Of a stretch of 51,279 bases of DNA, positions 4,247 through 45,652 are shown one piece after another; the stretch's first letter is position 1, and each line of letters begins with the position of its first letter. The DNA is from a virus. The translations under genes were made by a program, and so were the position numbers. Location: IMG/VR virus record IMGVR_UViG_3300048582_000067, positions 1 to 51,279 of that record; one strand, written 5' to 3'. Below the pieces are notes generated by a model. That model saw nothing but the letters and a program-made list of their open reading frames with translations. It was not told the origin of the DNA and did no database searches.

Positions 4247-4263
4247 CACCCCAGGATATAAAT

Positions 4264-4497
4264 ATGACAAATAAGCCTTTTTCCATGCCGTTTGTGCTGA
4301 AAGAGACTGTTAAGCATATGCGTAAGTCTATTGACATCTCTACCCAGAAAACCATTGCAAGGCTCCCTGAATTCAAGGACAATTCAGAGCTGGTAGCAGA
4401 GGTCATGACTACGCTGACTAACCTTAATAGGCTCAATAAGCTATTAGATGATATCGAAAATAACAACACAACACTCTTTGGAGATACAGAGAAATGA
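4264..4497 (+). CDS. Small tail-module protein of unknown function
   Basis: The 77-residue helical, charged product starts at the ATG at 4264, preceded by AGGA at 4253-4256. The same frame is open further upstream, but that stretch overlaps the tube gene. The stop (TGA 4495-4497) overlaps the ATG of the tail chaperone gene. Its place between tube and chaperone suggests a tail-assembly helper. Confidence 0.6.
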   Translation: MTNKPFSMPFVLKETVKHMRKSIDISTQKTIARLPEFKDNSELVAEVMTTLTNLNRLNKLLDDIENNNTTLFGDTEK

Positions 4498-4817: not shown

Positions 4818-5167
4818 ACTACTACGAGTTAGCTTATCTTCTTGGTATTACTAAGTCTGAGCTTATGGAACTTCCGTACGAAGAGCTCATTGGCTGGATG
4901 GAGTACTTCCGTCGTCGGCCACACGGCTGGCGAGAAGATAATCGAGCAGCTATCATAGCTATGTCCTTTGGTGGGGGTAAAGTCCGCCCAGAGGATCTCT
5001 TTGACTCGCTTCGTGTTCTCAAAGAAGAATCGAAAGTACAAGAAGAAACCCATGCCGCCGCTAACTTTGCTCAAAAGTTCTTTGATCGATTTAGCAAGCA
5101 GTTTACTGAAAAGGACCCTTTTAAAGATGATGAAGTTCAGCTTCAACTTGAAGGGTTTAGGGCCTAG
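4494..5167 (+). CDS. Tail assembly chaperone, -1 frameshift product (gpGT-like)
   Basis: A -1 slip on GGGAAAC (4790-4796) continues translation in a second frame from base 4796 to the TAG at 5165-5167, adding about 123 residues. The new part begins Arg-Leu-Ser-Glu-Glu-Glu-Leu-Asn-Tyr-Tyr. It contains ELAYLLGITKSEL and a Trp-Met-Glu-Tyr-Phe segment, typical of the T domains that link the chaperone to the tail tube protein. The second frame is closed upstream at 4760-4762 and has no start with a good ribosome binding site before 4865, so expression by frameshift is the simplest reading. Lambda uses GGGAAAG at the equivalent place. Confidence 0.8.
4790..4796 (+). other. Programmed -1 ribosomal frameshift slippery site
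   Basis: The heptamer GGGAAAC fits X-XXY-YYZ exactly in the zero frame (G, GGA, AAC). After slippage the tRNAs re-pair on GGG and AAA. It lies 18 bases before the zero-frame stop. Confidence 0.8.
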
Positions 5168-5447
5168 TGTCCGAAAGCAATTTGAAAAAGAAAGTCTCCC
5201 AGCCCTTGCAAAGCTAGCTAGCCTAGCCCTCGTAGAGCTAAAAGCTGCGACCCCTGTAGACACAGGAGAAGCTTCTGAGAGTTGGGAGTACTACTTTGCC
5301 GGTAAGAATACAGTGGTGCTAGAGAATAGCGCTGCTCACATAGTCTTTCTTAACGCTGGCTCTTCTGAGCAAGCACCCGCCTATTTTATTGAAAACGTAA
5401 TTCTAAAATACGGTAAACCGATAGGACCTATAGTTACTTACAAATGA
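5127..5447 (+). CDS. HK97 gp10-like neck / tail completion protein
   Basis: The 106-residue product contains LKAATPVDTGEASESWEYYF and later ENSAAHIVFLNAGSSEQAPAYF. This matches the HK97 gp10-like pattern of a helix, then P-x-DTG, then a strand, then an N-x-A-x-Y/F-x-x-x-x-x-G-S segment. The frame is open upstream to 4968 but that part overlaps the chaperone extension; ATG 5127 (or 5130) after AAGGA at 5111-5115 is the better start. This family usually lies before the tail tube gene, so its place here, between chaperones and tape measure, is uncommon. Confidence 0.6.
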   Translation: MMKFSFNLKGLGPSVRKQFEKESLPALAKLASLALVELKAATPVDTGEASESWEYYFAGKNTVVLENSAAHIVFLNAGSSEQAPAYFIENVILKYGKPIGPIVTYK

Positions 5448-5451
5448 TAAG

Positions 5452-5483
5452 AAGCCTTATGGATTACTCCGTAGGGCTTTTTT
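5452..5483 (+). terminator. Rho-independent terminator before the tape measure gene
   Basis: AAGCCTTATGGA (5452-5463) pairs with TCCGTAGGGCTT (5468-5479) over twelve pairs, two of them G-U, around a TTAC loop, followed by a run of T. It should reduce read-through into the tape measure gene. Confidence 0.8.
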
Positions 5484-5501
5484 ATCGTACAGGAGAAAAA
5501 C

Positions 5502-12074: not shown

Positions 12075-12682
12075 TGAGTGTTTACTATTACAGGGGGGTG
12101 GCGATTGCCGCCCCTCTAACCATTGAGAGCAATGAACCTTTCTTTGTATCTGACACACTTAGCCTGCGACAAGAGAGAGTCTTCCAGGGCGCACAGCGCT
12201 GGGAGCTCTCCTTTACGTTGAAATTTAGGGATGATGAAGACACCTACATGTCTAGCATCTTTTCAGCAGATAACAACGCTGAAACAATGACAATGCCGCA
12301 GCTGTTAACCGTTGACAAAAAAGCCTCGCAAGGGGGTGTGCTAACTGTGGCTAGCGGTGCGTCAGTAAACGCTACAGAAGTCTTGGTATCCGCTAGCTCA
12401 GAAGGCTATCTGGTCCCTAAGGGCAGCTTCGTGACCTTTGAAGGCCACACAAAAATATATCTTGTAAGAGAAGACTTCATTGGCGGTGACACAGCAACAC
12501 CTATGCTTGTTTACCCTAACCTTGTAGAGCCGGCTTACATCAGTGACGTTGTAGCCCACCCCGGCTCTGCTGTAAAACCGCAGCTAACTTACTACACATC
12601 AACTGAGACGCTTCGCGGCGTCACTTATGAAGATGGTGTGCTTATTGATCCTGGAACAATTAAACTTATAGAGGCCGTATAA
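12074..12682 (+). CDS. Minor tail protein, distal-tail (Dit) position
   Basis: The 202-residue beta-rich protein follows the tape measure gene with a TAATG overlap (12072-12076). In siphoviruses this slot encodes the distal tail protein that starts the tail-tip complex. The N-terminal half includes a strand-rich RWELSFTLKF segment common in proteins that interact with tube rings. I do not see a defining motif, so the role is inferred from order. Confidence 0.55.
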   Translation: MSVYYYRGVAIAAPLTIESNEPFFVSDTLSLRQERVFQGAQRWELSFTLKFRDDEDTYMSSIFSADNNAETMTMPQLLTVDKKASQGGVLTVASGASVNATEVLVSASSEGYLVPKGSFVTFEGHTKIYLVREDFIGGDTATPMLVYPNLVEPAYISDVVAHPGSAVKPQLTYYTSTETLRGVTYEDGVLIDPGTIKLIEAV

Positions 12683-13251
12683 TGAGAGACGTAACAGAGC
12701 GAGTGCTACTCGCCATTAATAGTAGACGACCTAAATTCTTCATACTTGGTAAGCTAGAGTTTCCAGGCGACACGCTGTTTCTATCTAGCCTCGGTTTTGA
12801 CGTAACTTTTGCAGGCGACCTTTATCCTAAGGGATCCCCTGTTATCAGCTTTGGTCCGCCACGGGCCTCTAGCTCTGTAGATAGACAAATCTATGAGCTT
12901 GTAGTCTCAGACACTGAAGGCGTTGTTAAAGACAAACTTCGTACAAGCGTGGTTGGCTCCTTGCTTTCTGTTTACATCAGCTTCTTTGATGCTACAACTG
13001 GCGAGCCTATTCTCGACGAAGAAGACGTTCTTTTGGCCTACCAAGGCGCGCTAGATTCTGGTGCTGTAGTTGTTAATACAGACAACAAAGTAGCTAAGCT
13101 GATGGCAGCTTCGCCTATGGGTAAGCTAGACGCTATCGGTGCTTATATGGTTTCTAAAGACGGTATGGCGCAAATCAATGCCGCAGACACTTCTTTTAAC
13201 GAGGTTATTGCCGGTAGTAAAGAAGTAAACTTTAAGTGGGGTAAGCGATAA
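12682..13251 (+). CDS. Minor tail protein (tail-tip, DUF2163-like)
   Basis: The 189-residue product overlaps both neighbours by start/stop codons. It has an N-terminal beta domain and a C-terminal segment ADTSFNEVIAGSKEVNFKWG shared by minor tail proteins that precede the central hub gene in many proteobacterial siphoviruses. It probably forms part of the tail-tip ring between the distal tail protein and the hub. Confidence 0.6.
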   Translation: MRDVTERVLLAINSRRPKFFILGKLEFPGDTLFLSSLGFDVTFAGDLYPKGSPVISFGPPRASSSVDRQIYELVVSDTEGVVKDKLRTSVVGSLLSVYISFFDATTGEPILDEEDVLLAYQGALDSGAVVVNTDNKVAKLMAASPMGKLDAIGAYMVSKDGMAQINAADTSFNEVIAGSKEVNFKWGKR

Positions 13252-15983
13252 TGGCTGTATTCTCTACTCTTGCTATCATCGGTACGCTTGCATCGCTTGC
13301 TGTCACAGTTGCCTCTATTGCCTACCAACGTAAAAAAGCGAAGAAGCTAAAAGACGAGCTAGACAAGCGGAAACAGGTTAACTTCTCCTACGACGGCGAA
13401 CCGTTTTATCTGTCTGTAGCTTACGGCCGCTGCAAGATCAACGGTGGTCGAACTATTCACCGTCTGCGTAACTCTTTTGTCTTTGCGCAGCCTAGCCTAC
13501 CGTATCGTGTGCCCACAACAGGCGACTACTATGATACAAACTACTACATTCGTGAAAGAGTACGTCGGGTTAACATTGGCGTCGGTAGTAACTTTAGAGA
13601 CAGAACTCACGAAATTGAAATTAAGTGGGCCGGCTCAGTTGTTCTTACACGGCCTAACGTAAGCCCTCTAGACGTGTTTGCAGACGGCGCAGGTAACAAA
13701 TACTACAAAGGTGATTTGGCACTAACACAAGATACCGGTGGCGGAGTTGATGTTGAAGGCGGTTACACTGATAACTACTATAGAGTTCACGTAGTAGGTC
13801 CTGGGCAAGCTCAGATCTTCTACTGGCCAAACGGCGGTGTCAACTTTGCCGGTTCAATTGGTGCTATCATTAAAAACCTGCTGTCGGGTCTCGGTATTGG
13901 CTCCATGTCAGGTAACCTCGGCGGAGATAAGGCTGAGTTTCTCTACGTACAGCAGGCCTTGTGCTTTGGTGGTATTAACCGCGTAATAGACGTTGAAGTA
14001 GACGATCAAATCTGGAACGAACCCAAGCTACAGTATGGGCAGCGTATCCACGTCTATAAAAACGGTAACGTAGCAGACAGCATGGCTTCAGCTAACGGCA
14101 TCCCCTCTACTAACGTGTTTACAAACACTTGCTATTCCTCCAGCGTATTCCGGCTCAACCGTGACGAGTATCAGTACAATGGCTCACCTAACGTAATCTT
14201 CTACGTTGAAGGTATGAGAGTTTATGATATTGTTGATCTTGGCGGCGGCAGCTACGGGCTTAGCTCTGAGAAGGTTTACAGCAATAATCCCGCGCTAGTT
14301 CTACTCGACTACCTACTTTCAACTAACTATGGCCTAAAGCTCTCGGTTAACCAAGTTAACCTAGAAACCTTCTACAAAGCAAAGGCTATCTGCAACCGCG
14401 TTGTTAGAAACTCGATTCCTGTAGACGGTAAAGTAAATGGTCGTCGCCCTGACATCGAGAATGAAGATGGTAGCGTCACAACGAGCCCAGCTATCCCTAA
14501 TCGTGCTATGCCGCTTTATGAGTGCAATATTGTTCTTGACACAGAGCGAGCTATCCGTGAAAACGTAGAGCTCATCCTAGAGTCCATGCCAGGCTCCGAG
14601 TTGATCTGGTCTGGTGGTGTTTACAAACTCTCGCTGATTGCGCCGCGCACTTCGGAAGAGCTGCAGGACTTGATTGCAGCTAACTTAACTTCCGCGGACA
14701 TCATCAAGGGTCAGGTGGATCTAGCTTGGCCAGACTCTAACTCACGTTACAACCAAGTAGTTGCTCGGTTTAGAAACGAGTTTGAAAACTTTACAGATGA
14801 CACAGTCACTTGGCCGCTGTCTTACTCTCCTGTTTACAATGCTTACTTAGAAGAAGACTCAGGTAAGCTACTGAAAACAGAAGTCTACCTACCCGCCGTT
14901 ACCGACCCTTACCACGCGCTAGCTGTGGCTGAAGAACTTGTCAGAACCTCACGGGCTTCAATGACAGTTAAGTGCACCGTTGGAAAGAAGGGTCTGTTCT
15001 TAGAACCTGGTGACATTGTGACTATAACCTCAGATGTGCTAGGACTTAACGATGAGATACTTCGTGTTAACTCAGTTACTCTATCAAGCAATATGACCGC
15101 GGAGTTAGAGCTAACAGAGTTTGATTTGAACACGCTAGCTTGGAACGTAGATGATAACATTGCATTCCTACCAAAGTTCTTGTTTTCACGCGCAGTGACA
15201 AAACCCGCTGCTGCGCTCTTTACACCAAACCCGCAAGGAGATGTTGTTCCAGGCGTACTGAGCTGGGATCTTGTGCCTGAGATTACTATTAGCGATTATG
15301 TGCTAGAGTACGCAATTACGCCGGAACCAGGTTTTGAGCCTGTATGGCAGATACTAGGTACTAAGAACTCAAGTCCTTATTCGCTCCAGCCACTACCTAC
15401 CGGCTGGTACCGCTTTGCAGTTACAAGCAGAGAGGACTACCGCTATCGTTCTTCACGGGTGGTAGCTACAGGTGCTGACCTTGTAACTATAGACTTTTAC
15501 ATTGTAAATCCTGACGACGTAAAGTATGCAACTATTTACGGTGACAGCGGCGATGAGCTGACTAACAACCAGTCACTTGGTATTCTCGGTATGAGCCATG
15601 TAGCTTACTACCGTTATCTTGTTGATTTTCCAACGCTGCCTGTTAGAGAGAACATTGTGTTTACTCCGCTCTATGGCCCAGGCGCACCTCCGCTTAGTGA
15701 AGTTGAACCACCACCACCAGACCCAGGTCGGACTGAGGCAGGCACTTTCTATCTTACAATCAGCGATTCTATCGCTGGCTGGGTTGGTAGCGTTAACGTC
15801 GACACTGGCGAAGCTGCTACTGAGGGTGTTGACATGGGCTTTGCCGCGGCAGTACCTATTGAGTATGTTGTCGGCGACGTTCTAATTGTTGAAGGTACAG
15901 ATGGCACAGGTGGAGCGCTAGTTAGAAGCTGGACCTACGTTGGTCTAGACACACTAGGTAACGACGCTTTCGAAGAACTTTAA
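13251..15983 (+). CDS. Central tail hub / host-specificity protein (gpJ-like)
   Basis: The 910-residue protein has an N-terminal hydrophobic segment (about 4-24) followed by a basic stretch. Next comes a domain with VNFSYDGEPFYLSVAYGRCKI (split at about 42-62), which in hub proteins packs on the tail tube. The middle holds a long beta-rich hub region (about 360-640). A fibronectin-III-like segment (about 660-750, with SWDLVPEITISDYVLEYAI) and a C-terminal beta domain (about 830-910) probably face the host. Length and position fit the lambda gpJ role: receptor contact and tail tip. No separate tail-fibre gene follows, so receptor specificity may lie in its C-terminus. Confidence 0.75.
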   Translation: MAVFSTLAIIGTLASLAVTVASIAYQRKKAKKLKDELDKRKQVNFSYDGEPFYLSVAYGRCKINGGRTIHRLRNSFVFAQPSLPYRVPTTGDYYDTNYYIRERVRRVNIGVGSNFRDRTHEIEIKWAGSVVLTRPNVSPLDVFADGAGNKYYKGDLALTQDTGGGVDVEGGYTDNYYRVHVVGPGQAQIFYWPNGGVNFAGSIGAIIKNLLSGLGIGSMSGNLGGDKAEFLYVQQALCFGGINRVIDVEVDDQIWNEPKLQYGQRIHVYKNGNVADSMASANGIPSTNVFTNTCYSSSVFRLNRDEYQYNGSPNVIFYVEGMRVYDIVDLGGGSYGLSSEKVYSNNPALVLLDYLLSTNYGLKLSVNQVNLETFYKAKAICNRVVRNSIPVDGKVNGRRPDIENEDGSVTTSPAIPNRAMPLYECNIVLDTERAIRENVELILESMPGSELIWSGGVYKLSLIAPRTSEELQDLIAANLTSADIIKGQVDLAWPDSNSRYNQVVARFRNEFENFTDDTVTWPLSYSPVYNAYLEEDSGKLLKTEVYLPAVTDPYHALAVAEELVRTSRASMTVKCTVGKKGLFLEPGDIVTITSDVLGLNDEILRVNSVTLSSNMTAELELTEFDLNTLAWNVDDNIAFLPKFLFSRAVTKPAAALFTPNPQGDVVPGVLSWDLVPEITISDYVLEYAITPEPGFEPVWQILGTKNSSPYSLQPLPTGWYRFAVTSREDYRYRSSRVVATGADLVTIDFYIVNPDDVKYATIYGDSGDELTNNQSLGILGMSHVAYYRYLVDFPTLPVRENIVFTPLYGPGAPPLSEVEPPPPDPGRTEAGTFYLTISDSIAGWVGSVNVDTGEAATEGVDMGFAAAVPIEYVVGDVLIVEGTDGTGGALVRSWTYVGLDTLGNDAFEEL

Positions 15984-16001
15984 GCTAGATTGGAGCTAGA
16001 T

Positions 16002-16694
16002 ATGAAACTACTAGAAGAGAGCCTAGTCTCCAGCGGTCTTACTAAGACTTGGAGAGCGGGCGCTATTGCGGGGGCTGTGAAGATTATTCTTTACGGCTAC
16101 CAGAAGGGTTACAGCACTGCCGAGATTGCCTTCAATCTCGCGCAGGCTGAGCATGAAACAGCAAGGTGGTTGCAGCCCATTAGAGAGGGTTGCAGCCGTC
16201 ACGGCCCGGCGGGTACTGATGCACAAGCTATTGCAGCTATTGCAGCAGCTATCCGTAAAGGTATCATTAAGTCAAACTACCTTACCAAAACTAACGGCGT
16301 GGCGCACTATGGTCGCGGGTTAATTCAGATTACTTGGCTGGATAATTATCTTAAGTTTCAAAAGCTTACAGGTAAGCCGCTAGTTGCAAACCCCGATCTA
16401 GCGCTAGAGTGGGAAACCTCTCTGTTCATTCTCTATCAAGGTATCAACAAAGGATTATTTAGAAAACATAAGTTTAGTGATTACGTAAAACCGGGTACCG
16501 AACCTACGCTGACAGCTTACGCCAACGCTAGGAACATTATCAACGGTGACACTAAAAAGTATGGAGCAGCAATTGGTTCTAAGGCGCTAGCCTACTACCA
16601 GCTGCTAAAACCCCTTGAGAAGGAACTTCTGGTTGCGCCTCAAAGCGACTACTGGCTAGACACCTTCTTGAGCCGCTTAGGAATCAAGAGATGA
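16002..16694 (+). CDS. Endolysin, glycoside hydrolase 19 type
   Basis: The 230-residue enzyme shows GH19 features: a catalytic Glu in LAQAEHETARW (about 46-56) and the substrate-cleft signature HYGRGLIQITWLDNY (about 103-117). Phage GH19 enzymes cut peptidoglycan glycan strands. There is no signal peptide, so it needs a holin to reach the wall. ATG 16002 follows GGAG at 15992-15995 with a six-base spacing; a TTG at 15990 in the same frame is a poorer start because the binding site would then be inside the gene. The stop overlaps the next ATG (ATGA at 16691-16694). Confidence 0.85.
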   Translation: MKLLEESLVSSGLTKTWRAGAIAGAVKIILYGYQKGYSTAEIAFNLAQAEHETARWLQPIREGCSRHGPAGTDAQAIAAIAAAIRKGIIKSNYLTKTNGVAHYGRGLIQITWLDNYLKFQKLTGKPLVANPDLALEWETSLFILYQGINKGLFRKHKFSDYVKPGTEPTLTAYANARNIINGDTKKYGAAIGSKALAYYQLLKPLEKELLVAPQSDYWLDTFLSRLGIKR

Positions 16695-16873
16695 GGAACA
16701 AAACCTGGAAAAGAGAAACTGCAGTAATGTGCCTACTCTACCTGTTCTACTTAGGGCTGTTTGGCCGGCTTGAGGTTGTTGAAACCCTAGCCTGGCCTGT
16801 ATTTCTCTTTGCAGGTGCAGCGTACGGTATGGACTGGGCAGACAAGAGTACGATTGTGAGGAAAACACCGTAA
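16691..16873 (+). CDS. Small membrane protein of the lysis cassette (possible holin)
   Basis: The 60-residue protein has a basic N-terminus and two hydrophobic segments (about 11-27 and 33-48) separated by a short loop with Gly-Arg-Leu-Glu, ending in a charged tail. Two short membrane helices, position directly after the endolysin and ATGA coupling fit a class II holin or a holin partner. Two other membrane proteins follow, so which one makes the lethal hole is not decided by sequence. Confidence 0.6.
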   Translation: MRNKTWKRETAVMCLLYLFYLGLFGRLEVVETLAWPVFLFAGAAYGMDWADKSTIVRKTP

Positions 16874-17121
16874 TGCTATTCCTAATCCGTAATGCTAAAA
16901 ATCTACTTATCGCTGGGCTAATTGCCGCTTTGGTGGTTGGCTACATCAGCTGGAAAAACTCTATTTACGAAGAAGTTGAGCGAGAGGTTACTCTTGAACA
17001 ACAAGAAAACTATATTGAAACAAGGAAACGAATAGATGAGGCTACTTCTACTACTAAGTCTCCTGATGCTGCCCTTGAGCGCTTGCGCGAACGGCAACTT
17101 CAAAGACAGAAAGGTGAGTGA
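16873..17121 (+). CDS. Inner-membrane spanin (Rz-like)
   Basis: The 82-residue product has one N-terminal membrane helix (about 10-26) and a charged, coiled-coil-like periplasmic part rich in Glu, Gln and Arg. The lipoprotein gene at 17036 starts inside it in another frame, exactly the Rz/Rz1 architecture. The pair links inner and outer membranes and fuses them in the last step of lysis of Gram-negative cells. It overlaps the preceding gene by one base. Confidence 0.8.
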   Translation: MLFLIRNAKNLLIAGLIAALVVGYISWKNSIYEEVEREVTLEQQENYIETRKRIDEATSTTKSPDAALERLRERQLQRQKGE

Positions 17122-17266
17122 GGAAGGTCTTTGCGATGGACTTCAAGCGCCTATTGACCAATTGAATGACTCGCTCTTAGTAGACGGTGGCCCTCGAACT
17201 ATCGTTGCTGGCGAGAAGGTTATAGCAGGCTATGATGCAGGGTGTTCGGTTGGAAAAGTGGATTAA
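17036..17266 (+). CDS. Outer-membrane lipoprotein spanin (Rz1-like)
   Basis: The 76-residue product begins with a classic lipoprotein signal, hydrophobic residues 2-13 and lipobox Leu-Ser-Ala-Cys with Cys17 as the lipidated residue. It starts 86 bases before the end of the inner-membrane spanin gene in a different frame and extends past it. The mature part is short and acidic. The lipobox supports a host with an outer membrane. Confidence 0.82.
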   Translation: MRLLLLLSLLMLPLSACANGNFKDRKVSEEGLCDGLQAPIDQLNDSLLVDGGPRTIVAGEKVIAGYDAGCSVGKVD

Positions 17267-17492
17267 CGAAATCATAGCCGCAGTAGTTGTATCTTTCTTT
17301 GCAACTATTATGTGGTTTGTTAGAACCGTTCTAACCAACGCTAGTCGTATAGATCTTCTTGAGAAAGAGATGGCTGAGCGTGACAAGCGTAGAATCGAAG
17401 ACAGAGAGTTTATCTCCGAGATGAGGCGAGAAATAAGAGATGAGTTGAAAGACCTTCGAGCAGAGATACATCGAGTAGCTCTCAAGGACTAA
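17232..17492 (+). CDS. Small membrane protein with coiled coil (possible holin/antiholin)
   Basis: The 86-residue product has one hydrophobic segment (about 13-32) followed by a highly charged Glu/Arg helix (about 40-86) that looks like a coiled coil. It starts within the lipoprotein spanin gene (two adjacent ATG codons at 17232 and 17235) and ends the late operon. Single-helix proteins with long charged tails occur among phage holins and antiholins; that is the best guess, without a family signature. Confidence 0.55.
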   Translation: MMQGVRLEKWINEIIAAVVVSFFATIMWFVRTVLTNASRIDLLEKEMAERDKRRIEDREFISEMRREIRDELKDLRAEIHRVALKD

Positions 17493-17564: not shown

Positions 17565-18491
17565 TTAGAACTCAGGCGGGTTGAGCGGTTGTGGTGGGCC
17601 TTGCACAGCTGCAACAGCGGCGGGTGGTTGAAGCTCATCAACTACCGCCCAATTGATCTCGTTCAACGCAGCAGCTGCAAGCGAGTAAGTAGATCTTTTC
17701 CCGTACACACCAGGGCCGAGCTTTGCCTTCTTAGGCTCCGGTAGCACTAGCTCCGGATCTAGACTGCGTAGATAGTGAACTACCTTATTTCGAAAGGTGT
17801 TTCCTGCGTCAAACCAGCAAGACAGCCAGTTCTCAAGGTGAACCTCCTTAGCTGCCGCCCACGAGAACAACTCACCAAGCTCACCCTGCTTTTCAGCTTC
17901 AATGAAGGCCAACGCCAGCTCTGTTGTGTCAGTTGGTAGACCCAGCGCCTCTAGCCGTGCTGTCTTCTTCTCAGCCAGCAAGCCGTCTAGTGCCGGAATA
18001 AGTGCTTCCAACACTTCGATAAGGTAGACCATTAGCAGTTTGAAGCCCTGCTTCTCTCCCGCGGTACGCCGCCGTTCAAAGAAATCCGCCATAGTCCGCT
18101 GAAGAACCTCCGCCAAGAACGTGTGGTGGAGGTTAATCAGTAGGGTCTCACGGGCACGAATCAGACCACCTTTGACAGCAGTACTTGCAATACCCTCTCC
18201 ACTAGCTTTCAACACAAGCAACTGCTCGTTGTAATAGAGCTTCGCGGCCTCAATATCCAGCCTACGTATTACCACACCAGCATCGCGTGCCCGCCGCTCT
18301 GTGTAGGTAACAAAGGACTTCACAGCTAGCTCTACAACAGGCTTGCGCAGCCCTTCTTCACCAAGATAAGTCTGCCATGACCTCGTGATTTGCATGGCAT
18401 TCTCAACGGAGGTAGCAGAGTGAACAAACAAGTCACCGGGGCGGAAGCAGTAAGTAAGCTTGTCGTCTAGTATTTCAGTTAGCCAGCTCAT
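17565..18491 (-). CDS. Unknown protein of the amidoligase cluster
   Basis: The 308-residue product is mostly helical, with Leu/Ala-rich segments, and ends in a Pro-rich tail (PPQPLNPPEF). It begins inside the end of the ATP-grasp gene (17-base overlap), with AAGGA upstream, so the two are coupled. It is the last gene of the leftward arm. I recognise no catalytic motif. It could be a partner, a substrate carrier or the protein that is modified; the sequence does not decide. Confidence 0.7.
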   Translation of the reverse strand: MSWLTEILDDKLTYCFRPGDLFVHSATSVENAMQITRSWQTYLGEEGLRKPVVELAVKSFVTYTERRARDAGVVIRRLDIEAAKLYYNEQLLVLKASGEGIASTAVKGGLIRARETLLINLHHTFLAEVLQRTMADFFERRRTAGEKQGFKLLMVYLIEVLEALIPALDGLLAEKKTARLEALGLPTDTTELALAFIEAEKQGELGELFSWAAAKEVHLENWLSCWFDAGNTFRNKVVHYLRSLDPELVLPEPKKAKLGPGVYGKRSTYSLAAAALNEINWAVVDELQPPAAVAAVQGPPQPLNPPEF

Positions 18492-19281
18492 TTACTTTCC
18501 TTTTGATCATTGCGGCGTAGTCAATGACTGTCTGGCCCTCCAAACCAGGTGCGGTGTTAATTTCAAGGACAAACGCTTCTTGCTTGCGCTCGTTCCAGAT
18601 TACGTCTACTGCACCAAAGTCAAGGTTGACCATGGTCAGAGCCTTAACAGCTTGGTTGACAGCGTCAGCTGGTACTTGGTCTAGGCTATTTCGAGCAAAG
18701 ACAAAGCCGTTAGCAAGATTCCGGATCTGGAAATCAACCTCTACCTGCGACTCTAGCCGCGCTTTCTTTTCTTGAACTGAGAACAGGCCTTGCGTCTTAG
18801 CGACGTGTAGCCGGAACTCCCGCCGTTTAGGGACGTAGAGACAGAGTAGCGTATTATTAGGAATAGCTTCTAGCTCTGCAAGGCTGGTTACCTTCACGAT
18901 ACCCTCACCGCTGTGGCCCGCAAGAACAGTTCGTGCAAAGACAGTTACTGGCTTGTCAGTGTTGAACCAGCCCCGTGCAACTTCTTTGTCAGTAGTGAAC
19001 GGCGGAACGCGGGGCGCAGTTGCTGGATCTTGCAACGTAGCCTCAAAGAACAGCCGCTTGTTGCTAGCTGCACGTAGTAGATCCGGTGGGTTCAGCACAG
19101 TCATACCTGAAGCTAGGAAAGTATTAGGGGCTGTAGTAGCTCCCCAATTAACTAGAATCTTGTCAGGTGCAGGCCGGAACTTAGAGTTCTCCAGCTTGAG
19201 CGTCTTTACCTCCAGTGCCTGCGCAAGCGCAACAGCACTCTTAGACCCTTGCTTATAGGGGTAGACAGCGAGTTTAGTCAT
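18475..19281 (-). CDS. ATP-grasp ligase (RimK/peptide ligase type)
   Basis: The 268-residue protein has the ATP-grasp core. A glycine-rich nucleotide loop AGHSGEGI lies at 121-128, a REFRLHV strand at 154-160 and a metal-binding C-terminal motif FVLEINTAPGLEGQT at 237-251 with Glu240 and Asn242. Such enzymes activate a carboxylate as acyl-phosphate and join it to an amine. The family is known for adding amino acids to protein termini (RimK) or making peptides. Its neighbour is an amidoligase, suggesting successive amide bonds on one target. It starts at ATG 19281 after GGAG. Confidence 0.85.
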   Translation of the reverse strand: MTKLAVYPYKQGSKSAVALAQALEVKTLKLENSKFRPAPDKILVNWGATTAPNTFLASGMTVLNPPDLLRAASNKRLFFEATLQDPATAPRVPPFTTDKEVARGWFNTDKPVTVFARTVLAGHSGEGIVKVTSLAELEAIPNNTLLCLYVPKRREFRLHVAKTQGLFSVQEKKARLESQVEVDFQIRNLANGFVFARNSLDQVPADAVNQAVKALTMVNLDFGAVDVIWNERKQEAFVLEINTAPGLEGQTVIDYAAMIKRKVNELAN

Positions 19282-19284
19282 CAG

Positions 19285-20124
19285 TTAGCTCCAATCAGTT
19301 AGGTACGCCCAGGTTTGAATATTCCGGAGCGAATTGTAAACAGTTTGTTCAAAGTGCGGCTTTGCAAACAAGTGCTTAGCGAAGTTTGGTAGCAGTAGGC
19401 TTACTACTTCTTTCTCTCCATTAGCAGACATGGACGTGATTAGCGTCCGAGGATTCTCAATCTTTTTACTGTTAGTGAACAGTTCCTCTAGCAGGGTAAT
19501 CCAGCGCACAACTGGCTCTGGCGTCAGCGGAGTACGTAGCGCGCGGAGCTCCAGCGTACCAAACTTACTTAGCGAAACTAGGTTCATGGCCGCGTAGCGT
19601 AGGCCTTCGCTGGTGAAGTAATGTGAGGAGAGTGTCTTACGGTTAAGACAGTTTTGGATACCAAAGGAGATATCCTCTGCATCAGACATCCGCAGGCAGA
19701 AGAGGTTACCTGCCCGTTCTTCACCAAGATCCTCAACAAGCAAGTCTTCCAGACAGTAGTAGGCAGCCATGAAGGTAAACAGCTGCCGAAGCGTTAGGTC
19801 TTGGCAGTTAACGTGGACGTGGACTCCTGCGCGCATCGAATCGTTAATCACAGCTTTACCGCTTAGAATTACGCTGTAGAGCTCTGCCAGATTAGCTACA
19901 CTGTCTTTAAGACTGTATGGCCCAGCGCTTACAGCCTCAAACGCCTCACCCCGTAGTGAACCGTCAGCTACGATACGCCAAGCCCCACTGAGCGAACCCG
20001 GCCCTACGTTAGCAGCGATGCCTCGTCCTTCGAACTCTAGCTCTAGCCCCAGGAGCTGAGTCTCCGGGTAACGGCGGTCAAAGTTAAAGTTCTCAGCGAC
20101 CTTAGTATTTAGCCAACTTGTCAT
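19285..20124 (-). CDS. Amidoligase (COOH-NH2 ligase, Amidoligase_2 type)
   Basis: The 279-residue protein has the amidoligase signatures related to glutamine synthetase: GLELEFEG at 26-33, DGSLRGEAFEAVSAGP at 54-69 and AGVHVHVN at 99-106. The acidic residues of the first motif and the histidines of the third bind the metals that hold ATP. The family forms amide bonds between a carboxyl group and an amine. Its start lies 23 bases inside the preceding gene and follows GGAGG. It is one of two different amidoligases in the cluster; the substrate is unknown. Confidence 0.85.
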   Translation of the reverse strand: MTSWLNTKVAENFNFDRRYPETQLLGLELEFEGRGIAANVGPGSLSGAWRIVADGSLRGEAFEAVSAGPYSLKDSVANLAELYSVILSGKAVINDSMRAGVHVHVNCQDLTLRQLFTFMAAYYCLEDLLVEDLGEERAGNLFCLRMSDAEDISFGIQNCLNRKTLSSHYFTSEGLRYAAMNLVSLSKFGTLELRALRTPLTPEPVVRWITLLEELFTNSKKIENPRTLITSMSANGEKEVVSLLLPNFAKHLFAKPHFEQTVYNSLRNIQTWAYLTDWS

Positions 20125-20734
20125 CCCCAGCCTCCAGCGCTAGTTCTTCGGTTAGAAAGTTAAACTTAGGCGCAAGGCCCAGTAGTCCGTTCTTGTTTAC
20201 AGCACCAACTGTGCTGCCGCGATACAGCAGTTTGAAGTGCTGGTTAATAGCAAAGTGTTTAGAGAAGGCTACCGGGATACCGGTTTCCTCAATGAGGTCT
20301 AGCGTTGCGTCTAGCGTAGGGTACTTGTTAAACAGGCAGTCAGTAATGCCTTTACGGAAGTCAACACTCTCTAGCTCGCCCTCACGCACAGGAGAAGAGC
20401 TTCCGTCTTTACCACCAGCACCAATGATAGCTAGCTGGTTGTGCCGCAACCCTTGCTTGTAGTCACGGCGGATAGGCACCCGTGTCAGATACCAAGCCGC
20501 CCGCCCCAGATAGTTGACGTAGCCAAGCTTACCAACTGCAAACTCAAACTCGTCTTCCTTTAGCGCGATAGGCTGCAGCTGCTTATTCTCACCCTGGATC
20601 GTTGCCTCGTTGAACTTAGTCGATCCGTTGTTGAAGATCTTAGTCACTCGAACCAAACCCTGCGCATAGTCTTTGGCTCGAATGTAGCTGTTTGTGAGGC
20701 GGCTAACAGCATACTCAGTGTCGTTGTTAAACAT
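20102..20734 (-). CDS. Unknown protein between the two amidoligases
   Basis: The 210-residue product lies between the two amidoligase genes and overlaps both (8 and 23 bases), so it is almost certainly part of the same pathway. It is beta-rich in the N-terminal half, with a conserved-looking NYLGRAAWYLTRVPIRRDYK segment at about 74-93. No catalytic motif is recognisable. It could be a scaffold or the acceptor protein for the ligases. The ATG at 20734 follows AGAGGA. Confidence 0.7.
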   Translation of the reverse strand: MFNNDTEYAVSRLTNSYIRAKDYAQGLVRVTKIFNNGSTKFNEATIQGENKQLQPIALKEDEFEFAVGKLGYVNYLGRAAWYLTRVPIRRDYKQGLRHNQLAIIGAGGKDGSSSPVREGELESVDFRKGITDCLFNKYPTLDATLDLIEETGIPVAFSKHFAINQHFKLLYRGSTVGAVNKNGLLGLAPKFNFLTEELALEAGDDKLAKY

Positions 20735-21566
20735 AGCAAGTCCTCTTTAGTTTAGTGTAGACAGCCTCACCTAGGTCTACAAGATTGGAGTTGATAATAG
20801 CTGCAGCGGAGGTCACTACAGCGCCGTTGTAGAAGCTTAGCGGCGCGTTAGTCATAGGGTCACGCATAACTGAGCACAGCGCGTTCACAGTGTTATCAAA
20901 CACGAAACCAATCAACTCGTCGCTAGTTAGCCATTGGTTCGATAGAGAGCGGTACTCCATACCGTAGGGCTTAGGCCGGAAAGCGCCAGCCGCCCCGTAG
21001 ATACTCCTTCTTGTATTGTCTTTGTCCCAGGCCAAGCTAGCTGCCCCGAGATAGTAGTCCAGCTCAACAGCCAGAGCAGCGCAGTTCATAATAAAACCAG
21101 GGTCTAGACGATCGAAGCCTGAGCCCCAGCCAGTGTGAACGTGTCCGCCAGCAGAGCGCATGTTAGGGTTGGCCAGCTTAGGCGCTTTGTTTAGTCGCCC
21201 AGTGTAGCCGTTGTAGTCAGGATCACAGCCCAGCTCTAGCGCTTCTGCCGGCGCTCTTGCCATTTCTTCGTCAGAGAACACAGCAACAGGAACTACCGCA
21301 AGGTCGTAACCCTTTGGTAGCATCTTCTTCAGCGTAGACTTAACGCTGTTCACTTTGAAGATGAACTCTCGCTTGTTTTCGCAAGGGTCAACCCCAAACT
21401 CAAGGGCCATACCGTCGACTTGAACCATCCCGTTCTTAACTTTGAAGGGTTCAGTCTTAGTCCCTGGAATCAACCCGTGAGCGCCTACGAATTGGCCTTC
21501 CTTGTTGACAACAAACACTTCAGGGTCGCAACCAATGAAGAAGTCATTGCCGTTAATCTTAACCAA
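20727..21566 (-). CDS. COOH-NH2 ligase, phiEco32-like type 2
   Basis: The 279-residue product contains IGCDPEVFVV (11-20), DGMALEFGVDPC (51-62) and RSAGGHVHTGWG (137-148), the signatures of the phage phiEco32-like amidoligase family. The metal-binding Glu and His residues are present, so it should be active. I chose TTG at 21566, which follows GGAG at 21574-21577 by seven bases; a GTG at 21599 in the same frame lacks a binding site and would overlap the amidotransferase gene more. It belongs to a different amidoligase subfamily from its neighbour at 19285, which suggests two distinct bonds. Confidence 0.82.
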   Translation of the reverse strand: MVKINGNDFFIGCDPEVFVVNKEGQFVGAHGLIPGTKTEPFKVKNGMVQVDGMALEFGVDPCENKREFIFKVNSVKSTLKKMLPKGYDLAVVPVAVFSDEEMARAPAEALELGCDPDYNGYTGRLNKAPKLANPNMRSAGGHVHTGWGSGFDRLDPGFIMNCAALAVELDYYLGAASLAWDKDNTRRSIYGAAGAFRPKPYGMEYRSLSNQWLTSDELIGFVFDNTVNALCSVMRDPMTNAPLSFYNGAVVTSAAAIINSNLVDLGEAVYTKLKRTCYV

Positions 21567-22689
21567 CTTTAGTCTCCATCTCTTTGAAGGTGCTTGCACA
21601 GTTCATGCAAAAGGGCGCGTCTTTCTCTAGCCACTTGACATCACCCTTGAGGTAGTCATCATAGAACAGGTTGTTACTGCAAACAGTGCAGCCGTGCCGT
21701 GTGTTCTTATCAAACTCCGGCTTGCTCAACTCCATCTTCAGCCAGCCAGTCTCAGGTTTGACATGTTGCAGTTGGATAACGTTGTCTCCACCCGCGTTCT
21801 TAAACTGCTGATCAAAGTAGCGAGGCTTGCGGTTGCGGCCTGACCAGACACGCTCACCACCAGAGCCATGGTAGTTGCCACCAGACCAGTTCTGGTACCC
21901 CTGCCCCTGCTGGTAGCTGCTGGGGGGTACTACCACTAAAGGGGGTTCTACAGTCTCCATTGAAAGAACCAGCTCTTTACCACCCAGCTGTATAGTGATG
22001 TGCTGGTCATTAGTAAGCGCAATAGGCTCACCAACCATGGTGATCTTAGCCTTAGCCATGGCAAGCTTTAGCATCCAAGCCTCAGACGCGTAGAATAGCG
22101 TACCGTTCGTAGGCAGCATGTAGTAGAAGAGTGTCCTATCCTTATTCCTGAATAGGTTGTAGGTGTCGGCCTTTTCGTCGTACCAGCTAAGAGCTAGCGC
22201 GCCGCGCAGCTTACCCACTACGTCCTTAAGGCTCATCTCCTTAGATAGAGCGTAGAAGATCTTTTCTGAGTCAGTCTGACCCTTGATATCCGCACCAGTA
22301 GGTAGGCTGTGTAGGCCAGTGTGGATAGTGCCGTTGTGGGCACCAACAATGTGACCATGATGGAAGGGGTGCGCGTTCTCAGCATTAACAAGTCCAACTG
22401 TAGCCGAGCGGTTGTGTCCCATTACAAAGGTGAAGTTATACTTAGTCTCTTCCTCAAACTCGCCTCGGCTGTTAAACAGCTCAGGGAACTTCTTGTAGAG
22501 GTTGTAGGGGATGCCCTCTGTTTTTACCAACGTTGTCTTGTACTTAGTAGTGCCAACGCGAGCGCGCTTGAAGGCAATACCTGTTGAGTCTTCACCTCGC
22601 GTAACGTCGAAGTGCAGTAGCCAGCGGAACACGCTCATCTGCGCGCTACTAAGCCAGGTGTTAGAGACTACTCCAACTAGTCCACACAT
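21559..22689 (-). CDS. Class II glutamine amidotransferase with C-terminal zinc ribbon
   Basis: The 376-residue protein starts Met-Cys-Gly-Leu-Val-Gly, placing the Cys2 nucleophile of class II amidotransferases at the mature N-terminus. Further Ntn-hydrolase motifs are RGEDSTGIA (31-39), GHNRSATVG and AHNGTIHTG. These enzymes release ammonia from glutamine for a partner synthetase. After a Gly/Ser/Tyr-rich linker (about 255-290) comes a zinc-ribbon-like end with CTVC and CMNC pairs (about 333-363), not part of the usual domain. No synthetase domain is fused, so ammonia may go to a separate ligase in the cluster. ATG 22689 follows AGAAGG. Confidence 0.85.
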   Translation of the reverse strand: MCGLVGVVSNTWLSSAQMSVFRWLLHFDVTRGEDSTGIAFKRARVGTTKYKTTLVKTEGIPYNLYKKFPELFNSRGEFEEETKYNFTFVMGHNRSATVGLVNAENAHPFHHGHIVGAHNGTIHTGLHSLPTGADIKGQTDSEKIFYALSKEMSLKDVVGKLRGALALSWYDEKADTYNLFRNKDRTLFYYMLPTNGTLFYASEAWMLKLAMAKAKITMVGEPIALTNDQHITIQLGGKELVLSMETVEPPLVVVPPSSYQQGQGYQNWSGGNYHGSGGERVWSGRNRKPRYFDQQFKNAGGDNVIQLQHVKPETGWLKMELSKPEFDKNTRHGCTVCSNNLFYDDYLKGDVKWLEKDAPFCMNCASTFKEMETKVG

Positions 22690-22693
22690 GTTG

Positions 22694-23284
22694 TTATACC
22701 TTCTTCTTTACAGCCAAAAGTTTCTCTACGTACTCAAGGAAGAAGTCCCTGCAGTCAGTAGACGCGGTAGCATACTCAGGGTGCCACTGCACGCCTGCAA
22801 TCAATCTAGATTCGGAGAACACAGCCTCCACGGTGCCGTCAACAGCATGATGAACTTCCTCGTACTGAGAAGACTCATCTCGTGGAACCGCTTGGTGGTG
22901 CGAGGAAGTAACAGTGAGATACTTGCCTGGACCGATTAGCACTTCATGCTGGCCGTGATTGTGGCCTTCAATGTGCTGAATCAGCGTGCCACCCGTGCTA
23001 ACATGTAGTAGCTGCAGGCCACGGCAGATACCGAGCTGAGGGATACCAGAGAGACGAGCTGCCATGATAGCACTGATCTCAGTTAGGTCTTTACGACTAT
23101 CAAAGCTAGTCTTAGGATCGCGAGTCTCAAAGTACAGACGCGGATTTACGTCTGACCCTCCAGGCACAACAATGAAGTCAGGTGCTAAGAAAGAGTCTTC
23201 TTTCAGCTCTGCGTAGCCGGCACGAACCAGCATGTCAGCAATAGCAAAGGAAGTGGTAGTCAACTGGAATGTCTTCTTAGTCAC
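22694..23284 (-). CDS. Class I glutamine amidotransferase-like hydrolase (peptidase C26 type)
   Basis: The 196-residue protein has the class I triad: nucleophile Cys87 in GICRGLQLL and the His-x-Glu pair in GVQWHPE (His168, Glu170). The early VPGGSDVNP motif (40-48) is typical of gamma-glutamyl-GABA hydrolases (PuuD) and related enzymes. These cleave gamma-glutamyl amides. In this cluster it may trim or reverse gamma-glutamyl bonds made by the amidoligases. It starts at GTG 23284 behind AGGAG. Confidence 0.83.
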   Translation of the reverse strand: MTKKTFQLTTTSFAIADMLVRAGYAELKEDSFLAPDFIVVPGGSDVNPRLYFETRDPKTSFDSRKDLTEISAIMAARLSGIPQLGICRGLQLLHVSTGGTLIQHIEGHNHGQHEVLIGPGKYLTVTSSHHQAVPRDESSQYEEVHHAVDGTVEAVFSESRLIAGVQWHPEYATASTDCRDFFLEYVEKLLAVKKKV

Positions 23285-23287
23285 AGG

Positions 23288-24283
23288 TTAGGCTCCTAGG
23301 TTGTAAGTTTTAGAGAAAGCTTCTAGCTTCCGTAGATCGAGGAATAGGCCACCGCCAACGCTCTTTTGCATGATACTTTTCATCAGTTTAGCCGTGGCAG
23401 CCGCCCAGAGGCTTGCGTCTGGTGCCTTTTCAACGGGGATAACACTCTTCTCACCCACAAAGGTAGGTGTCTCAGACAGTACAGTGGCAAACATAGGCTG
23501 AGTTGCGCGGCTCTGCGGAATCGCAGGATTCCGTCTACTAGTCAATAGAATACCGGCTGAGTTGCTGGGCCAGTTACGCGTCTGAAAGAAACTGTTGTTT
23601 CCAGCTGGCGGCTGAAGCGGCTCGTCTTTGAACGTAGCTTGCACATCCTCAACAGAGTTGACGTTACTTGGTCCAGGAAGATGGTTGGAGACGTTACCGC
23701 TAAACACAAATCGACAGTTAGCGTACTCGTGCAGCCTGACTGGACTGCTACTGTAGACCATCTTATCTTCCGGGCCTCTTTTCAAGTTGATGTTGTAGCT
23801 AACAAAGGTCAAGAGAAGCAACAACGGATGTATATCGTAGCCGTCTTCGATTGCTTTACCAACTGCAAACAGGTTAGTCTTGTACTCGTTAGTTGTCAAG
23901 CGTGAAAGCTGCGCAGCGCCTAGCCAGGCCGCATTGTGATAGTGTGTAGTCTTAATAATGCCGTTCTTCAGTGATGACTCGGCATCCTTAAACGGGAAGG
24001 CATCGCGGAACGCACTACGGTTAAGTAGCCAGTCGTAGAACGCAACAACACCAGGCTGTCTTGCATACTCCGGATTTGTCCTGGTCACTACGTAGTCCGG
24101 ACTCCAGCCAGTGGGCGCGCTACGCAGAAAACCATGGCAGGCACCAACACCTGTGTGGATCCGCTCAAGATTTTCGCTTAGCGCTGTAGCTGCGACTGCC
24201 CAGCCCGAGTTAGGGTCTGTTTTCTTAAACAAGGCGGTGAAGTGCCCTGTTGCATGCAGCTTCAGAAGGTCTTCGAGAGCCAT
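23288..24283 (-). CDS. Unknown protein, first gene of the amidoligase cluster
   Basis: The 331-residue product has no motif I recognise. The N-terminal half is helical with conserved-looking Trp, His and Tyr residues (TTHYHNAAWLGAA). The C-terminal half is Pro/Asn/Ser-rich and probably loosely structured, ending in a Gly-rich segment. It is coupled to the class I amidotransferase gene (3-base gap) and begins after AGAGGA. It is separated from the glutaredoxin gene by a terminator hairpin, so the cluster may have its own promoter near 24284-24316. Confidence 0.65.
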   Translation of the reverse strand: MALEDLLKLHATGHFTALFKKTDPNSGWAVAATALSENLERIHTGVGACHGFLRSAPTGWSPDYVVTRTNPEYARQPGVVAFYDWLLNRSAFRDAFPFKDAESSLKNGIIKTTHYHNAAWLGAAQLSRLTTNEYKTNLFAVGKAIEDGYDIHPLLLLLTFVSYNINLKRGPEDKMVYSSSPVRLHEYANCRFVFSGNVSNHLPGPSNVNSVEDVQATFKDEPLQPPAGNNSFFQTRNWPSNSAGILLTSRRNPAIPQSRATQPMFATVLSETPTFVGEKSVIPVEKAPDASLWAAATAKLMKSIMQKSVGGGLFLDLRKLEAFSKTYNLGA

Positions 24284-26424: not shown

Positions 26425-26739
26425 TTATTTGTTCTTTCTGGCGAGTCGCCTCTTGGGTCTGTGTTCCTGCTTTAACGTCAAGAGGTAGACTGCTGTGTCT
26501 TTAGTAATTGTCGGGTAACGCTCTAGACTGAGCAGCAGCGTCCCCGCTTCTAATTCTTCTTTAGTAATCAAGTGCTTATGTCGATGCTCTATAGACTCGT
26601 AGTTCTCTAACATGACTATTGCCATCTCATCGAACTCAGCATCAGACATAAGCGACTGATCTAGGTGGTAGTAAGCGTAGGCTGCCATGAGATACCACGG
26701 CACTAGCATGTTTTGGTTAGCTTGTGTAATTTGTAGCAT
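26425..26739 (-). CDS. Hypothetical protein
   Basis: The 104-residue protein is helical with Tyr, Met and Glu-rich segments and a very basic C-terminus (KRRLARKNK). It overlaps the preceding gene by 23 bases. Its 3' part carries one copy of the motif proposed as a promoter for the reductase gene. The family is unknown. Confidence 0.6.
   Translation of the reverse strand: MLQITQANQNMLVPWYLMAAYAYYHLDQSLMSDAEFDEMAIVMLENYESIEHRHKHLITKEELEAGTLLLSLERYPTITKDTAVYLLTLKQEHRPKRRLARKNK
26463..26487 (-). promoter_or_regulatory. Candidate promoter/regulatory motif, copy C
   Basis: On the - strand this contains ACCTCTTGACGTTAAAG, identical over 17 bases to copy A at 45628. It ends 44 bases before the reductase ATG, inside the preceding coding gene. 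See the related finding. Confidence 0.45.
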
Positions 26740-27280
26740 CTGTGAACCTCGGCAGAGCTAAACCTGTTGCATAGACGTAGGGGACGCCTCTGAACTGCCT
26801 TCTACCATAGGATCCCACTTCGATACCATTGATCCTGAGATCAAAGCCTTCGTTTGTTACTACAAGCACTGTTTTACTATACGGGGCTAGCTCTTTAAAG
26901 CAAGCCTTAGCTGCTTGGCATAGGCTACTAAGCTCATCACCGTCACAGTCGATACTGATCAGCTCTAGCTTCCGGAAGATGCCGTGATGAAGTGGGCTTA
27001 CTCCTTTATCGTGCGGCCTAAAACACTCAGTTATCGCCTGATAGCGACCCGGCTGGATCTGCTCGTCTTTAATTAGCTGTAAGAAGCTCTGCTCTGCGGA
27101 GCCTACTAGCCATTTATCGTTTCCGGCATAAGTAGCCCTATCGATAGATGCTGTAGCTTTTATACACTCAACGTCTACAGCGGTAGGAACATAGTGAAGA
27201 TATTCAATTTCATGCTCTCTATCATAGTGTTTAACTGCTTGATAGAACAGTCTATTGTCTTGAGCCGTCTTTGAAAGCAT
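26717..27280 (-). CDS. Hypothetical protein
   Basis: The 187-residue protein has alternating alpha/beta character, with a Cys- and Asp-containing middle (LISIDCDGDELSSL). I cannot assign a family. It overlaps both neighbours (29 and 23 bases), which supports it as a real translated gene of the operon. Confidence 0.6.
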   Translation of the reverse strand: MLSKTAQDNRLFYQAVKHYDREHEIEYLHYVPTAVDVECIKATASIDRATYAGNDKWLVGSAEQSFLQLIKDEQIQPGRYQAITECFRPHDKGVSPLHHGIFRKLELISIDCDGDELSSLCQAAKACFKELAPYSKTVLVVTNEGFDLRINGIEVGSYGRRQFRGVPYVYATGLALPRFTDATNYTS

Positions 27281-45027: not shown

Positions 45028-45248
45028 TCTTCCCGCCCCCATTCCTTCAGCATTTGTACTTCAAAGAGTAGATGCTCTAGATCAAATCTAGAAACAACTA
45101 AGTAGTCTGTAAATTCATCTCTACCCGCTGTAACTGATTTAGACCAAATTAGTTTTCTAAGCCGCCGCTCTAAAATCGAAGTTCGCCAGTTTATGATGTG
45201 TTTTAACTGCTTGATTTTGAACTTGTAATCAGCGCCTCTCCCAAACAT
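45024..45248 (-). CDS. Hypothetical protein
   Basis: The 74-residue basic product (KFKIKQLKHIINWRTSILERR) starts at ATG 45248 after GAGG with five-base spacing, within the end of the preceding gene. A helix-turn-helix-like look cannot be confirmed. ATGA couples it to the next gene. Confidence 0.58.
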   Translation of the reverse strand: MFGRGADYKFKIKQLKHIINWRTSILERRLRKLIWSKSVTAGRDEFTDYLVVSRFDLEHLLFEVQMLKEWGREE

Positions 45249-45612
45249 AAGCACCTCGCTCTTCATCAATATCACAGTAGCCAGCCATACCGTAACGTGT
45301 ATCTGGTAGCTCGTAGATCCAAGCAGTCACTACCTCACCGTTGTCCAGCAGAATAGGTCTTTGATACCGCGTGTAGAAAGACCCATTGCTCTCTAGCCAG
45401 TCAAGGTTTTGCACAGTGCCGGCATCATCTACAGCAAACACTTCACCTAGAATAGGATGGCCGTCTGCGTTTCGTACAGCGCCAGGACAGCCTAGGTGAT
45501 ACAGCGTGTAGTTGTCAACAGTCACTCCTTGGTCTACGAATTGAGCTTTGGCAAGCAGCCGGTTGTTTCCATGACCACGTTTGAGTGTGCCATAAACAAA
45601 AAAGTAGTCCAT
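45229..45612 (-). CDS. Gamma-glutamylcyclotransferase-like protein
   Basis: The 127-residue product has FFVYGTLKRGHGN (4-16), the YGTLxxG signature, and the catalytic Glu74 in NLDWLESNGSFYTRY. Enzymes of this family remove gamma-glutamyl groups as 5-oxoproline, including the deprotection step of butirosin synthesis (BtrG). The start at ATG 45612 follows AGGAG. It is the first gene of the leftward block, distant from the amidoligase cluster but of matching chemistry. Confidence 0.82.
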   Translation of the reverse strand: MDYFFVYGTLKRGHGNNRLLAKAQFVDQGVTVDNYTLYHLGCPGAVRNADGHPILGEVFAVDDAGTVQNLDWLESNGSFYTRYQRPILLDNGEVVTAWIYELPDTRYGMAGYCDIDEERGAYVWERR

Positions 45613-45627
45613 TTCGCTCCTTTTTCT

Positions 45628-45652
45628 CACCTCTTGACGTTAAAGAAGAAAG
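45628..45652 (+). promoter_or_regulatory. Candidate promoter/regulatory motif, copy A
   Basis: The + strand reads CACCTCTTGACGTTAAAG followed by AAGAAAG and ends ten bases before ATG 45663. It lies in the divergent gap between the two arms. A TTGACG and a TATACA 18 bases apart could also be a sigma-70 promoter, but the other copies lack the second box. Confidence 0.45.

What the first reader, a model, noticed from the sequence alone, without database searches (positions are those of the whole stretch)
17565..24283. Eight-gene phage peptide-ligase cluster with two amidoligases, an ATP-grasp enzyme and two amidotransferases
The block encodes, in transcription order, an unknown protein, a C26-type hydrolase, a class II amidotransferase with an added zinc ribbon, a phiEco32-type amidoligase, an unknown protein, a second-type amidoligase, an ATP-grasp ligase and another unknown protein. 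Genes overlap or abut, with hairpins on both sides. The families are known to make and break amide bonds, and combinations of ATP-grasp and amidoligases have been proposed to make peptides or tag proteins or cell walls. The full set, with three unknown proteins that could be carrier or target, suggests a dedicated pathway with no known product.
Basis: partly seen in the sequence, partly recalled or inferred. Interest (0 to 1): 0.9.

Follow-up and report, generated by a model that had tools for sequence, protein, structure and literature searches.

The report
Known phage peptide-ligase cassette, product unknown
This virus of bacteria carries a set of seven co-inherited genes, already known from other phages, that appears to build and trim a glutamate-containing peptide early in infection, but nobody has yet shown what it makes; two of the seven proteins are of unknown function and turn out to be fixed parts of the set.

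Summary
Eight leftward ORFs lie at 24283-17565, and the enzyme families and catalytic residues are as described. This is not a newly found pathway: it is the phage cassette published as the 'peptidoglycan modification cassette' (phiEco32, LUZ24, PA11, CW02, RIO-1, HP1; PMC5498523), whose product I found demonstrated nowhere. Around 51 viral homologues of the phiEco32-type ligase, the class II amidotransferase, g5, the second amidoligase and the ATP-grasp enzyme occur in 51/51. g1 is found in 46 and C26 in 45, usually in the same order. So two of the 'unknown' proteins are core parts. g1 has a near-invariant Cys-Arg-His set and no known fold. g5 is confidently predicted as a mostly beta, weakly SH3/Tudor-like protein with an Arg-rich loop. 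The third unknown, g8, is lineage-specific (10 loci). Nearly every cassette has C26 or this cyclotransferase, both gamma-glutamyl-bond-cleaving families, which points to gamma-glutamyl chemistry. Best reading: an early-expressed cytoplasmic pathway with three ligases and gamma-glutamyl trimming. The most likely target is a cell-wall precursor; a soluble peptide or a protein remains possible. New member of a known kind.

The parts
23288..24283 (-). g1, 331 aa, core protein of unknown function; C49 79/79, R128 82/82, H201 77/81, E133 77/82 in relatives
   Evidence: ORF; homologues in 46/51 viral contigs; residues; structural matches to CVT22, CW02, RIO-1 proteins, no PDB match
22694..23284 (-). 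g2, 196 aa, peptidase C26 / class I glutaminase-fold hydrolase; triad Cys87, His168, Glu170
   Evidence: PF07722 2.4e-27; nearest solved structures include gamma-glutamyl-GABA hydrolase PuuD; triad 81-82/82
21559..22689 (-). g3, 376 aa, class II glutamine amidotransferase domain with C-terminal zinc ribbon; Cys2, Arg94, Asn119-Gly120, Asp140
   Evidence: PF13522 2.7e-18, phrog_4736 4e-59; residues; zinc ribbon
20727..21566 (-). g4, phiEco32-type COOH-NH2 ligase, 279 aa if read from TTG 21566 (ORF opens at GTG 21599, 290 aa)
   Evidence: PF14395 2.6e-6, phrog_3815 2.4e-76; start site; D25, E27, D62, E67, H153, H155, R208, K210, E215 invariant or nearly so
20102..20734 (-). g5, 210 aa, core protein of unknown function, predicted mostly beta protein with Arg-rich loop (R85, P87, R89, G95)
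   Evidence: phrog_11055 4e-19; 51/51 contigs; AlphaFold2 pLDDT 89.9; weak Tudor/SH3-like matches, best E 0.02
19285..20124 (-). g6, 279 aa, Amidoligase_2 (gamma-glutamylcysteine-ligase-like); ExExE 28-32, E63, H102, H104, R137, E192, R194
   Evidence: PF12224 5.9e-11, phrog_7469 7.9e-51; residues
18475..19281 (-). g7, 268 aa, ATP-grasp ligase; K75, E155, K172, D226, E240, N242
   Evidence: phrog_2599 3.1e-67; MptN/RimK-like NCBIfam hits 1e-7, below cut-off; residues
17565..18491 (-). g8, 308 aa, lineage-specific unknown protein directly after g7
   Evidence: homologues in 10 loci (window included), always after g7, about 24% identity; none in 50,697 phage records
17514..17543 (-). terminator-like hairpin closing the leftward operon; overlaps a weaker rightward one
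45229..45630 (-). gamma-glutamyl cyclotransferase (GGCT/AIG2-like), probable eighth enzyme of the pathway, unlinked
   Evidence: PF06094 5.4e-23, phrog_2520; in 22/51 cassette loci close by; E80 36/36

Best explanation
The cluster is a copy of the conserved phage amidoligase cassette. Shown by sequence: seven genes (g1-g7) inherited together, all seven without an obvious membrane anchor, with three ATP-dependent ligases whose active-site residues are intact, a glutamine/gamma-glutamyl-binding class II amidotransferase domain, and a gamma-glutamyl-cleaving enzyme (C26, the cyclotransferase, or both). Inferred: early in infection the two glutamine-synthetase/GCS-like ligases (g4, g6) and the ATP-grasp enzyme (g7) join glutamate or related amino acids stepwise to a cytoplasmic acceptor. 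g3 supplies ammonia or removes a gamma-glutamyl group, and g2/GGCT remove a gamma-glutamyl unit to finish or recycle the product. g5 acts as an adaptor that binds an acidic substrate or the acceptor, and g1 as a Cys-dependent enzyme. The acceptor is most probably a peptidoglycan precursor on the cytoplasmic side, so that newly made wall is altered; this last step is a hypothesis.
For: Co-inheritance: g3, g5, g6, g7 in 51/51, g1 in 46, g2 in 45 of 51 viral contigs with enough flank; 42 have all seven. Same order in TC6, PA11, GP100, Klyazma, Pecta, CVT22, CW02 and Phriendly records. Catalytic residues kept. 50/51 contigs have C26 or GGCT, and those without C26 usually have GGCT: Fisher p 0.07 on contigs, 0.003 with isolates, relatedness not corrected. 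g2 resembles PuuD-type gamma-glutamyl hydrolases. In Bacillus-type genomes the g4 family is fused to an ATP-grasp domain next to a MurF-like ligase. No protein of the core has a clear transmembrane segment. In HP1 the homologous genes are expressed immediately after infection (PMC7082346).
Against: No product, substrate or phenotype has been measured for any cassette in the papers I could read. The wall target rests on enzyme-family analogy and on one bacterial neighbourhood, which also holds a PEP mutase, so it may concern another metabolite. Contigs are related, so counts are not independent. Loci were collected through g4, so they do not show that g1 or g5 never occur alone. GGCT is far from the cassette in this genome.
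Confidence: 0.4

Rival explanations
1. The cassette makes a soluble gamma-glutamyl peptide or gamma-glutamyl-polyamine, using glutamate as a protecting or carrier group that C26 or GGCT later removes, as in the Puu/Spu polyamine pathway or butirosin side-chain assembly (the last from memory).
For: Nearest solved or curated relatives of g2 are gamma-glutamyl-GABA hydrolase PuuD and gamma-glutamyl-CDP-amidate hydrolase. C26 and GGCT tend to stand in for each other. The class II amidotransferase also shows weak similarity to EgtC, to my knowledge a gamma-glutamyl hydrolase in ergothioneine synthesis.
Against: No transporter, carrier protein or polyamine gene was found in the cassette; the benefit of a soluble product to the phage is unknown.
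Confidence: 0.25
2. The ligases tag a host or phage protein (for example RNA polymerase or a ribosomal protein) with glutamate or peptide residues, with g5 as target-binding adaptor.
For: g7 is closest to RimK/MptN-type alpha-L-glutamate ligases. g5 is predicted to be weakly Tudor/SH3-like, a fold that often binds proteins or RNA. Early expression in HP1.
Against: Three different ligases plus gamma-glutamyl hydrolases are more than a single tag needs; PDB matches of g5 are not significant.
Confidence: 0.2
3. The cassette hypermodifies phage DNA or a nucleotide precursor.
For: In several relatives the cassette lies beside replication genes; amino-acid modified phage DNA is known in general.
Against: No dedicated base-hydroxymethylating enzyme or other hypermodification gene was recognised in the early region of the window, and the cassette here lies between the ribonucleotide reductase and lysis genes.
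Confidence: 0.07

Closest known systems
'Peptidoglycan modification cassette' of HP1/RIO-1, phiEco32, LUZ24, PA11, CW02 (PMC5498523)
   Same: Two amidoligases, ATP-grasp, class II amidotransferase, GGCT, plus homologues of g5 and of g1 (HP1 gp38 matches g1, E 1e-20; phiEco32 gp85 and LUZ24 gp17 match g5).
   Different: Here GGCT is unlinked, C26 is present, g8 is added at the end, and the block sits next to the lysis genes instead of primase/helicase.
Paundecimvirus PA11/TC6 (Zobellviridae)
   Same: Same order g1-C26-GAT-II-ligase-g5-amidoligase-ATP-grasp.
   Different: g4 only about 51% identical; the gene after ATP-grasp (PA11 gp009, TC6_047) is not related to g8; small extra genes inserted.
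PuuD / C26 gamma-glutamyl hydrolases
   Same: Cys-His-Glu triad and GGxDxxPxxY signature in g2.
   Different: Shorter, part of a ligase cassette; substrate unknown.
Bacillus COOH-NH2 ligase + YheC/D ATP-grasp fusion (L137)
   Same: Same ligase family coupled to ATP-grasp.
   Different: Fused protein, other ATP-grasp family, chromosomal, no g1/g5/g6 found at the locus.

Membership tests
phage amidoligase ('peptidoglycan modification') cassette | phiEco32-type ligase, second amidoligase, ATP-grasp and glutamine amidotransferase encoded together | tested here: met
   definition in PMC5498523
phage amidoligase ('peptidoglycan modification') cassette | gamma-glutamyl cyclotransferase present | tested here: met
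   45229-45630, unlinked
phage amidoligase ('peptidoglycan modification') cassette | actually modifies peptidoglycan | not testable with these tools
   no biochemical data found in papers read
peptidase C26 / class I glutaminase fold | Cys-His-Glu triad | tested here: met
   C87 81/82, H168 81/82, E170 82/82
class II glutamine amidotransferase | N-terminal Cys and Arg/Asn-Gly/Asp glutamine-binding residues | tested here: met
   C2 98/98, R94 99/99, N119-G120 99/99, D140 99/99
COOH-NH2 ligase type 2 (PF14395) | score above Pfam cut-off and conserved acidic/His residues | tested here: met
   27.3 vs 25 bits
Amidoligase_2 (PF12224) | score above cut-off, ExExE and HxH | tested here: met
   43.2 vs 22 bits
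RimK-type ATP-grasp | score above Pfam/NCBIfam cut-off | tested here: not met
   16.3 vs 21 bits; 31.4 vs 143 bits; ATP-grasp-like by phrog_2599 and residues only
known anti-phage defence system component | match to PADLOC model | tested here: not met
   no match for any of the eight

The most novel reading that the evidence does not exclude
The cassette is a gamma-glutamyl 'protect, extend, deprotect' peptide assembly line, with g5 as substrate adaptor and g1 as a Cys-dependent enzyme of a new fold, making a compound or conjugate not known from cells.
Probability: 0.2. Interest if true: 0.75.

Novelty: new member of a known kind. Interest (0 to 1): 0.42.

Why it matters
Hundreds of phage records carry this ligase family (317 of 50,697 match g4), including phages of Pseudomonas, E. 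coli and Klebsiella, and in one phage (HP1) the cassette genes are switched on first. The product is still undemonstrated in the papers I could read. Fixing the core set, including two uncharacterised proteins and the C26/GGCT choice, narrows the chemistry towards gamma-glutamyl peptides and says which genes to test.

Tried and rejected
Sequence and structure searches of g1 and g8 against PDB gave nothing usable: the g1 model has mean pLDDT 66.6, and the designed-PPR hits are probably spurious. g5 matches in PDB (tandem Tudor/SH3-like) are below significance. g8 is not detectably related to g1, g5, PA11 gp009, TC6_047 or LUZ24 gp14/15. Profiles of g1 and g5 were too divergent to scan with, and single-protein scans returned only contigs already held, so occurrence of g1 or g5 without the cassette remains untested beyond the phage tblastn. 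Defence-system membership rejected. The original Iyer 2009 and Hardies 2013 papers are not held; their claims are cited through papers that quote them. The cassette-like contigs found in genome contigs (L131-L136) are contigs of metagenome-assembled genomes and may be misbinned phages; not used for host inference.

Full report
What is there. The window is a whole IMG/VR virus record of 51,279 bases. Rightward genes (scaffold, long structural-type ORFs, endolysin and small lysis-type genes) run from 617 to 17,492; nearly all others run leftward. The eight ORFs of the finding are real, overlapping or abutting, most with good ribosome-binding sites. They end at a strong terminator-like hairpin (17543-17514) that faces the lysis genes. 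Upstream are a glutaredoxin-like gene and a ribonucleotide reductase. The phiEco32-type ligase most likely starts at TTG 21566, coupled to the stop of the amidotransferase gene.

What the proteins are. g2 is a C26 hydrolase with the full Cys-His-Glu triad and the GGxDxxPxxY signature; g3 a class II amidotransferase domain with zinc ribbon; g4 a COOH-NH2 ligase type 2; g6 an Amidoligase_2; g7 an ATP-grasp protein recognised by a phage family but below the RimK cut-offs. The catalytic positions expected from these folds are kept in about 80-108 relatives.

The set is inherited as a unit. I collected loci by the g4 protein in phage records and viral contigs and searched their ORFs with iterated profiles. 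In 51 viral contigs with at least 6 kb before and 4.5 kb after g4, g3, g5, g6 and g7 are present in all, g1 in 46, g2 in 45, all seven in 42. The order g1-g2-g3-g4-g5-g6-g7 dominates, the main exception being g7 moved upstream. The contigs are related, and some nearly identical, so these are not independent counts. The same order is seen in annotated isolates of Pseudomonas, Klebsiella, Erwinia, Citrobacter, Salinivibrio and Vibrio. In one contig (L034) g5 and g6 are duplicated together.

The unknown proteins. g5 is core (51/51), predicted with high confidence (pLDDT 89.9), mostly beta, with weak resemblance to tandem Tudor/SH3-like folds and a conserved Arg-Pro-Arg-Gly loop. phiEco32 gp85 and LUZ24 gp17 are its homologues. 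g1 is core: Cys49 79/79, Arg128 82/82, His201 77/81. Its model is poor (pLDDT 66.6) and matches no solved fold, but it matches predicted structures of CVT22, CW02 and RIO-1 proteins. phiEco32 and LUZ24 have, in the g1 position, two proteins each with a short C-[FY]-G motif near the N-terminus. The motif C-[FYHW]-[GA] was found in 61 of 86 g1 hits but in 39 of 576 other ORFs of similar size. I take these as probable distant g1 relatives; profile scores alone do not show it. g8 occurs only in the ten loci closest to the window, always after g7, at about 24% identity: a real but lineage-specific gene.

How it probably works. Fifty of 51 cassettes have C26 or GGCT, and those without C26 usually have GGCT (Fisher p 0.07; 0.003 with isolates; not corrected for relatedness). 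Both families act on gamma-glutamyl bonds. The class II amidotransferase keeps the full L-glutamine/gamma-glutamyl binding set. With two GCS/GS-like ligases and one glutamate-ligase-like ATP-grasp enzyme, the simplest scheme is stepwise ligation of glutamate-type units to a cytoplasmic acceptor followed by gamma-glutamyl trimming. No core protein has a clear membrane segment, so a wall target would have to be a cytoplasmic precursor. In Bacillus-type genomes the g4 family is fused to ATP-grasp beside a MurF-like ligase, which mildly favours wall-type or polymer substrates. HP1 expresses its homologous genes immediately (PMC7082346), which fits host takeover or exclusion of rivals. Target and product are inferred, not shown.

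What is known. A 2017 paper describes this cassette in HP1 and lists RIO-1, phiEco32, 7-11, PA11, tf, MR299-2, LUZ24, PaP3 and CW02, with the hypothesis of wall modification against superinfection (PMC5498523). OM43 phage work repeats it (PMC10580990). UFV-P2 and TC6 papers list the genes (PMC3890496, PMC6209634). The window is therefore a new member of a known kind.

Noticed in passing
window 42694-44868 (-): Single-subunit phage RNA polymerase (phrog_414, 3.6e-129; also N4-like phrog_2166), whereas PA11-like relatives of the cassette are annotated with a sigma factor instead.
   Followed up: no
window 48678-49769 (-): RNA ligase (phrog_968, 1e-90), with a metallo-phosphoesterase upstream at 50379-50984, possibly an RNA repair pair.
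   Followed up: no
L034 8188-9638 and 11180-12591: A g5-g6 pair is present twice in opposite orientation (72% and 89% identical), which suggests that g5 and g6 work as a pair.
   Followed up: partly
L137 6309-16700: Bacillus-type cluster: spermidine-synthase-like, COOH-NH2 ligase/ATP-grasp fusion, MurF-like ligase, PEP mutase and further genes; looks like an uncharacterised, perhaps phosphonate-linked, biosynthetic cluster.
   Followed up: partly
window 26717-27280 (-): Protein matching a phage family annotated histidyl tRNA synthetase (phrog_4806, 4e-38), only 187 aa.
   Followed up: no
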